From positions 1-64,000 of IMG/VR virus record IMGVR_UViG_3300032322_001315: a stretch of DNA of 64,000 nt, one strand, 5' to 3'. Below are positions 46,186-46,257 of this stretch, in pieces (the first letter of the stretch is position 1; each line of letters begins with the position of its first letter). Source of the stretch: a virus. A program made the position numbers and the translations under genes. The notes under the pieces were generated by a model. It had not been told where the DNA came from and ran no database searches. It was given only the letters and a program-made list of their open reading frames with translations.

Positions 46186-46257
46186 TTAGCGTGCAGCAAT
46201 ATACATGGTAACTTCAAATCCAAAACGCTTGTCTTGTGCAGTTGGCTTAGTCCACAT
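46186..46257 (-). CDS. pqqA: PqqA-like PQQ precursor peptide (23 aa)
   Basis: A 23-codon gene from ATG 46257 to TAA 46186 with a strong ribosome site (AAGGAG six bases upstream). It begins MWTKP and contains GFEVTMY followed by IAAR, closely matching the PqqA family (23-24 aa) in which the Glu and Tyr of E-V-T-x-Y are cross-linked and cut out to form pyrroloquinoline quinone. Here these are Glu15 and Tyr19. No PqqB-E genes are in the window, so the host enzymes would process it. It stands alone between a probable promoter and a terminator. A chance match of such a specific pattern with this length and signals is unlikely. Confidence 0.9.
   Translation of the reverse strand: [23 protein letters not shown]

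What the first reader, a model, noticed from the sequence alone, without database searches (positions are those of the whole stretch)
46186..46257. A phage-borne pqqA-type peptide gene
Seen: a 23-codon gene with a strong ribosome site beginning MWTKP and ending [11 protein letters not shown], including the Glu and Tyr (Glu15, Tyr19) that PqqE links. Known: PqqA peptides of 22-24 aa are the substrate from which PQQ is built, by PqqB-E. Inference: extra copies in infection would raise PQQ and keep periplasmic dehydrogenases (for example methanol or glucose dehydrogenase) running, an auxiliary metabolic gene; it may point to a methylotrophic or other PQQ-using host. I cannot check whether phage pqqA has been reported.
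Basis: partly seen in the sequence, partly recalled or inferred. Interest (0 to 1): 0.92.

Follow-up and report, generated by a model that had tools for sequence, protein, structure and literature searches.

The report
Phage gene for PQQ precursor peptide
A T4-like virus of water bacteria carries a real 23-codon gene for PqqA, the peptide cut up to make the redox cofactor PQQ; one published lake virus already had such a gene, but the same tiny, mostly unannotated gene turns out to sit in every cultured phage of methanol-eating Methylophilales bacteria that I could check and in well over a hundred uncultured viruses.

Summary
Window 46186-46257 on the minus strand encodes [23 protein letters not shown], which scores above the curated cut-offs of Pfam PqqA (34.5 vs 21.1 bits) and NCBIfam PqqA (33.4 vs 20), with Glu15 and Tyr19 in place. 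It is a stand-alone unit with a ribosome site, pqqA and a terminator-type hairpin, beside a phage rubrerythrin gene in a 90.5-kb T4-like virus record. No pqqE is present. Phage PqqA is not new: a Lake Baikal methylotroph virus was published with one in 2020. New here is the breadth. Six cultured Methylophilales phages (Melnitz, Venkman, MEP301, MEP401, MEP402, P19250A) all carry pqqA, none annotated as such. The gene is under purifying selection; many peptides are identical to Methylophilaceae PqqA. The window's peptide is instead 20/23 identical to PqqA of other Burkholderiales, including a small-genome, AT-rich genus in which all eight genomes hold pqqA and pqqE. Best explanation: substrate dosage, in which the phage adds the consumed precursor and host PQQ enzymes do the rest. 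PQQ production during infection is untested. A covarying 3' hairpin, absent from Rfam, was noticed.

The parts
46186..46257 (-). pqqA: 23-codon gene [23 protein letters not shown], E15 and Y19 present
   Evidence: Pfam PF08042 and NCBIfam TIGR02107 above curated cut-offs; translation
46264..46269 (-). ribosome binding site AAGGAG, 6 nt from the ATG
   Evidence: sequence; GGAG present in all seven aligned relatives
46281..46297 (-). 5' leader hairpin CACACAGACGTTGTGTG
   Evidence: sequence and pattern scan; several relatives have a different short hairpin at about the same place, seen by eye; significance not tested
46304..46310 (-). TTAAATA, possible phage late-type promoter core
   Evidence: sequence; similar A/T-rich core at this place in the seven relatives; inference only
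46137..46164 (-). 3' hairpin CCGAGACCTCTGCGAAAGTACGTCTCGG followed by TTTTTTT; terminator-type and conserved
   Evidence: covariation, covariance model hit 66 bits, E = 9e-14, only one in the window (the window sequence was among those used to build the model)
45677..46111 (-). neighbouring rubrerythrin/ferritin-like gene, downstream of pqqA
   Evidence: Pfam PF02915 E = 9.6e-27

Best explanation
This is a functional phage pqqA, an auxiliary metabolic gene that works by substrate dosage. SHOWN: a PqqA-family peptide with the Glu and Tyr that PqqE joins; a self-contained gene with its own ribosome site and, in this virus, a terminator-type hairpin; no pqqE in the virus record; purifying selection on such genes in viruses; likely host bacteria that have the pathway and often extra pqqA copies. 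INFERRED: during infection the phage makes extra PqqA; host PqqD and PqqE cross-link Glu15 to Tyr19; host protease, PqqB and PqqC finish PQQ. PqqA is consumed one peptide per cofactor, so it is the part a phage can usefully multiply with a 72-base gene. The added PQQ would keep PQQ-dependent alcohol dehydrogenases such as XoxF supplied, so that energy and carbon still flow into phage production. The window's host is most likely a PQQ-making Burkholderiales bacterium outside Methylophilaceae, perhaps a small-genome AT-rich genus whose PqqA is 20/23 identical.
For: Family membership. No PqqE over cut-off in the window record, 42 other long pqqA+ viral records and six phage genomes, nor in 12 further viral records. 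Purifying selection outside the searched motif: pN/pS 0.35, with 17 different DNA versions of one identical peptide; shifted frames give ratios above 1. Six cultured Methylophilales phages have it; apart from one Manatee Spring podovirus, the only other hits in 50,697 phage records are two contigs of a record that is bacterial DNA with a pqq cluster. Several viral peptides are identical to host PqqA. All 22 Methylophilaceae genomes tested have 1-12 pqqA copies, and a paper notes that this family tends to keep many pqqA copies with single copies of the rest (PMC4109929). One pqqA virus (IMG/VR 3300025120_009955) also encodes a full 624-aa methanol dehydrogenase, up to 95% identical to marine Methylophilaceae. 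For the window: 20/23 identity to PqqA of a genus in which 8/8 genomes have pqqA and PqqE over cut-off; two of three of its genomes tested have a XoxF-like dehydrogenase. A terminator-like hairpin follows 60 of 135 viral pqqA versus 55 of 779 control ORF ends (Fisher p about 3e-25).
Against: No expression or PQQ data. Whether PqqA limits PQQ in these hosts is unknown; in Acetobacter, pqqAB overexpression raised PQQ by 29% against eightfold for pqqABCDE (PMC7936290), so the peptide alone may help little in some hosts. Only about 6 of 80 phages with a related rubrerythrin carry pqqA, so it is optional. The host is inferred from one peptide. The hairpin comparison counts related viruses separately, so its p-value is too optimistic.
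Confidence: 0.77

Rival explanations
1. Decoy: the phage peptide occupies PqqD/PqqE and lowers host PQQ, shutting down host methanol oxidation.
For: A lone substrate peptide could in principle titrate the enzymes; two relatives replace Met18 by Ala.
Against: Many viral peptides are identical to functional host PqqA, Glu and Tyr are kept in every copy I collected (partly because the searches demanded them), and some viruses also bring methanol dehydrogenase (PMC7678222), which argues for supporting the pathway.
Confidence: 0.06
2. PQQ is raised to protect the infected cell from a second phage, by blocking a PQQ-import receptor used for adsorption.
For: PQQ blocks infection by a phage that uses the E. 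coli importer PqqU (PMC12124388).
Against: No such receptor is known for these phages; the gene tracks PQQ-making, methanol-oxidising hosts, not importers.
Confidence: 0.05
3. The locus matters as an RNA (conserved 3' hairpin, short transcript), and the peptide is incidental.
For: The 3' hairpin shows strong covariation and an invariant apical part.
Against: Purifying selection is on the protein frame; only 2 of the first 121 pqqA loci carry the hairpin within 110 nt, and it also follows unrelated genes.
Confidence: 0.04
4. Passive hitch-hiker or mis-assembled host DNA.
For: One 'phage' record in the collection is bacterial DNA with a pqq cluster.
Against: No pqqE in the viral records; portals, terminases and helicases in the same contigs; presence in genomes of isolated phages.
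Confidence: 0.03

Closest known systems
Bacterial PqqA (Pfam PF08042, NCBIfam TIGR02107), precursor peptide of PQQ
   Same: Length 23, MWTKP start, GFEVTMY core with E15 and Y19
   Different: Sits alone in a phage, without pqqBCDE; followed by a phage-type hairpin not seen in the host loci searched
PqqA of Lake Baikal virus VP_266 (PMC7678222)
   Same: Phage-borne pqqA read as an auxiliary metabolic gene for methanol oxidation
pqqA of cultured Methylophilales phages (Melnitz, Venkman, MEP301, MEP401/402, P19250A)
   Same: Stand-alone pqqA with ribosome site; Melnitz peptide 18/23 identical to the window's
   Different: P19250A, Venkman and MEP peptides are of the Methylophilaceae type; P19250A is only 14/23 identical
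Multiple stand-alone pqqA copies of Methylophilaceae chromosomes (PMC4109929)
   Same: Extra pqqA without extra pqqBCDE: dosage of the substrate
   Different: Chromosomal, not viral

Membership tests
PqqA (PF08042 / TIGR02107) | Score above curated cut-off | tested here: met
   34.5 vs 21.1 bits; 33.4 vs 20 bits
PqqA (PF08042 / TIGR02107) | Glu and Tyr of the E-x3-Y motif, joined by PqqE | tested here: met
   E15 and Y19
PqqA (PF08042 / TIGR02107) | Gene beside pqqBCDE in the same genome | tested here: not met
   No PqqE in the record; neighbours are phage genes. Lone pqqA copies also occur in bacteria (PMC4109929, PMC9851590), so this is not a defining requirement of the peptide family
PqqA (PF08042 / TIGR02107) | Is cross-linked by PqqE/PqqD and becomes PQQ | not testable with these tools
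   needs biochemistry
Phage auxiliary metabolic gene | Located in a viral genome among viral genes | tested here: met
   T4-type polymerase, RNR, helicases; PHROG portals and terminases in relatives
Phage auxiliary metabolic gene | Host-derived metabolic function kept by selection | tested here: met
   pN/pS 0.35 outside the searched motif; peptides identical to host PqqA in other phages
Phage auxiliary metabolic gene | Alters host metabolism during infection | not testable with these tools
   no infection data

The most novel reading that the evidence does not exclude
A lone precursor-peptide gene is a near-universal and repeatedly acquired feature of phages of PQQ-dependent methylotrophs: several unrelated phage lineages each picked up pqqA from their own hosts and run it as a short single-gene unit, so phages dose a consumed substrate rather than an enzyme.
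Probability: 0.5. Interest if true: 0.72.

Novelty: new member of a known kind. Interest (0 to 1): 0.58.

Why it matters
Most auxiliary genes known in phages encode enzymes or photosystem parts. Here the phage brings only the consumed raw material of a cofactor, in 72 bases. Because the gene is so short it was missed by gene callers in published methylophage genomes; two kinds of record carry a predicted ORF on the opposite strand instead. Its presence in every cultured Methylophilales phage checked suggests that PQQ supply limits phage growth in these abundant marine and freshwater methanol oxidisers, which can be tested with existing phage-host pairs. It also gives a short marker that points to PQQ-making hosts of uncultured viruses.

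Tried and rejected
Calling the window's host Methylophilaceae: rejected as the first choice, because its peptide is only 15/23 identical to that family's PqqA but 20/23 to other Burkholderiales. The two 'Acinetobacter phage MD-2021a' hits were set aside as bacterial DNA (one was inspected). A radical-SAM hit in one pqqA+ virus is not PqqE (29.5 vs cut-off 381 bits). The 3' hairpin is not specific to pqqA and not in Rfam. Weak Rfam hits near the locus are far below cut-offs and were ignored.

Full report
WHAT IS THERE. Window 46257-46186 (minus strand) encodes [23 protein letters not shown] and a TAA stop. AAGGAG stands 6 nt before the ATG. The peptide scores 34.5 bits against Pfam PqqA (cut-off 21.1) and 33.4 against the NCBIfam PqqA equivalog (cut-off 20), and is the only match in the 90,509-base virus record (E = 1.9e-8 for the whole record). 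Glu15 and Tyr19, the residues joined by PqqE (established knowledge; the Glu-Tyr cross-link is also stated in PMC9851590), are present.

SETTING. The record is a T4-like virus: T4-type DNA polymerase, ribonucleotide reductase, DnaB-type and other helicases and an SbcC-like nuclease; the nearest named phages over the polymerase region are Melnitz and cyanophages at about 67% DNA identity. Next to pqqA lie a rubrerythrin, an RNase H-like protein, a GroES-like protein, an S-adenosylmethionine decarboxylase and a dCMP-type deaminase, plus tRNAs. No PqqE and no PQQ-dependent dehydrogenase domain was found in the whole record.

RELATIVES. tblastn against 50,697 phage records finds 12 records: nine are Methylophilales or Methylophilaceae phages (four Melnitz isolates, Venkman, MEP301, MEP401, MEP402, P19250A), one is a Manatee Spring podovirus, and two belong to a record whose inspected contig is bacterial DNA with pqqB, pqqC, pqqD and a radical-SAM gene beside pqqA. 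The OM43 phage isolates listed in PMC10580990 are all among the hits; the partial genome HIM624-A was not tested and did not appear in a search with a MEP402 protein. None of these genes is annotated as pqqA. In the Melnitz and Manatee Spring records a hypothetical ORF was called on the opposite strand. The papers on Melnitz and on MEP401/402 do not mention a PQQ gene.

A second pattern found the window's own class (...[17 protein letters not shown]) in further contigs, and a search with the neighbouring rubrerythrin found more, several of them with pqqA beside that gene. None of 12 further pqqA+ viral records has PqqE, and in a set of 49 records including the window none passes the PqqE cut-off. 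The longest ORFs of the contigs match phage helicases, portals, terminases and recombinases.

SELECTION. Leaving out the seven codons fixed by the search, 114 distinct viral pqqA sequences have pN/pS 0.35; for the nine codons before the motif the ratio is 0.48 in the true frame and 1.3 and 2.3 in the shifted frames. One peptide, [23 protein letters not shown], occurs in 17 different DNA versions. These genes are translated and useful to their carriers (inference from selection). The pairs are not independent of ancestry, so the ratio is descriptive.

HOSTS. Twenty-two of 22 Methylophilaceae genomes carry pqqA, in 1 to 12 copies; the 1.3-Mb streamlined strain HTCC2181 has three. PMC4109929 notes that this family tends to keep several pqqA copies with single copies of the other genes. 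Five viral peptide types are identical to host peptides. One pqqA virus also has a full methanol dehydrogenase, up to 95% identical to marine Methylophilaceae. The window's peptide differs: 15/23 identical to the Methylophilaceae type, 20/23 to two other groups of Burkholderiales. One is an AT-rich genus of 1.1-1.9 Mb genomes in which eight of eight have pqqA and a PqqE over cut-off, two of three tested have a XoxF-like dehydrogenase, and the pqqA I inspected are next to what looks like pqqB. The window is 36% G+C, closer to that genus (38-39% in its loci) than to the high-GC group (64-66%).

MECHANISM. PqqA is consumed one molecule per PQQ (established). A phage that copies its genome many times could raise the dose of this substrate with a 72-base gene while using host PqqB-E. 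The multiplicity of pqqA in hosts, the lack of the enzymes in the phages, the co-occurrence with methanol dehydrogenase in one virus here and in the Baikal viruses (PMC7678222), and the purifying selection all fit. A terminator-like hairpin follows 60 of 135 viral pqqA genes against 55 of 779 control ORF ends, so many are probably single-gene transcripts. That PQQ rises in infection is not shown. Acetobacter data (29% more PQQ with pqqAB, eightfold with pqqABCDE; PMC7936290) warn that the gain could be small.

NOVELTY. Phage PqqA as an auxiliary gene was published in 2020 for one Baikal virus (PMC7678222); a 2026 reservoir survey lists viral pqqA without detail in its main text (PMC13188868). 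I found no paper in the library that reports it in the cultured methylophages or as widespread; the library lacks most subscription journals. The window's case is a new member of a known kind, with a new host type likely.

A SIDE FINDING. Downstream of the window pqqA lies a hairpin whose outer helix changes with compensation while its apical part ACCTCTGCGAAAGTACGT stays nearly fixed. Over 18 sequences 98% of cells pair, with 42 double-sided changes against 12 in shuffles and at most 11 in slid controls; the sequences were collected by the fixed apical part, not by the outer helix. It occurs once in the window and in 24 IMG/VR contigs found by exact pattern: after pqqA at about 25 nt in viruses with two different pqqA types, and after DUF2828-protein and SU10-portal-like genes in others. 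It is not in Rfam and was absent from the 55 bacterial loci searched. It looks like a shared phage 3'-end element, not a part of PQQ biology.

Noticed in passing
window 46137-46164 (minus); also L247, L268, L278, L044, L455-L475: 3' hairpin with covarying outer helix and nearly invariant apical ACCUCUGCGAAAGUACGU, usually once per stretch searched, about 10-27 nt after the stop of pqqA, DUF2828 or SU10-portal-like genes in different phages; not in Rfam.
   Followed up: partly
IMGVR_UViG_3300025120_009955 (L130:1084-2958, L132): A pqqA virus that also encodes a full-length XoxF-type methanol dehydrogenase, up to 95% identical to marine OM43 bacteria.
   Followed up: partly
IMGVR_UViG_3300048670_001567 (L251, L257): A 94.5-kb viral contig with two different pqqA copies about 70 kb apart ([23 protein letters not shown] and [23 protein letters not shown]).
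   Followed up: no
GenBank MZ577097.1 76100-76195; MW202481.1 2067-2195: Hypothetical genes annotated on the strand opposite to pqqA are probably spurious.
   Followed up: no
CAKLQF020000010.1 ('Acinetobacter phage MD-2021a'), L128: The inspected contig carries a bacterial pqq cluster and polyphosphate kinase; it looks like host DNA filed as phage.
   Followed up: no
window 45677-48332: Cluster of host-like genes near pqqA: rubrerythrin, GroES-like, S-adenosylmethionine decarboxylase, dCMP-type deaminase.
   Followed up: no
window 30069-38641 (minus): Run of about ten similar-sized genes, including DUF5672, an NAD-dependent epimerase, a family 2 glycosyltransferase and a DNA methylase; several have no Pfam match.
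   Followed up: no
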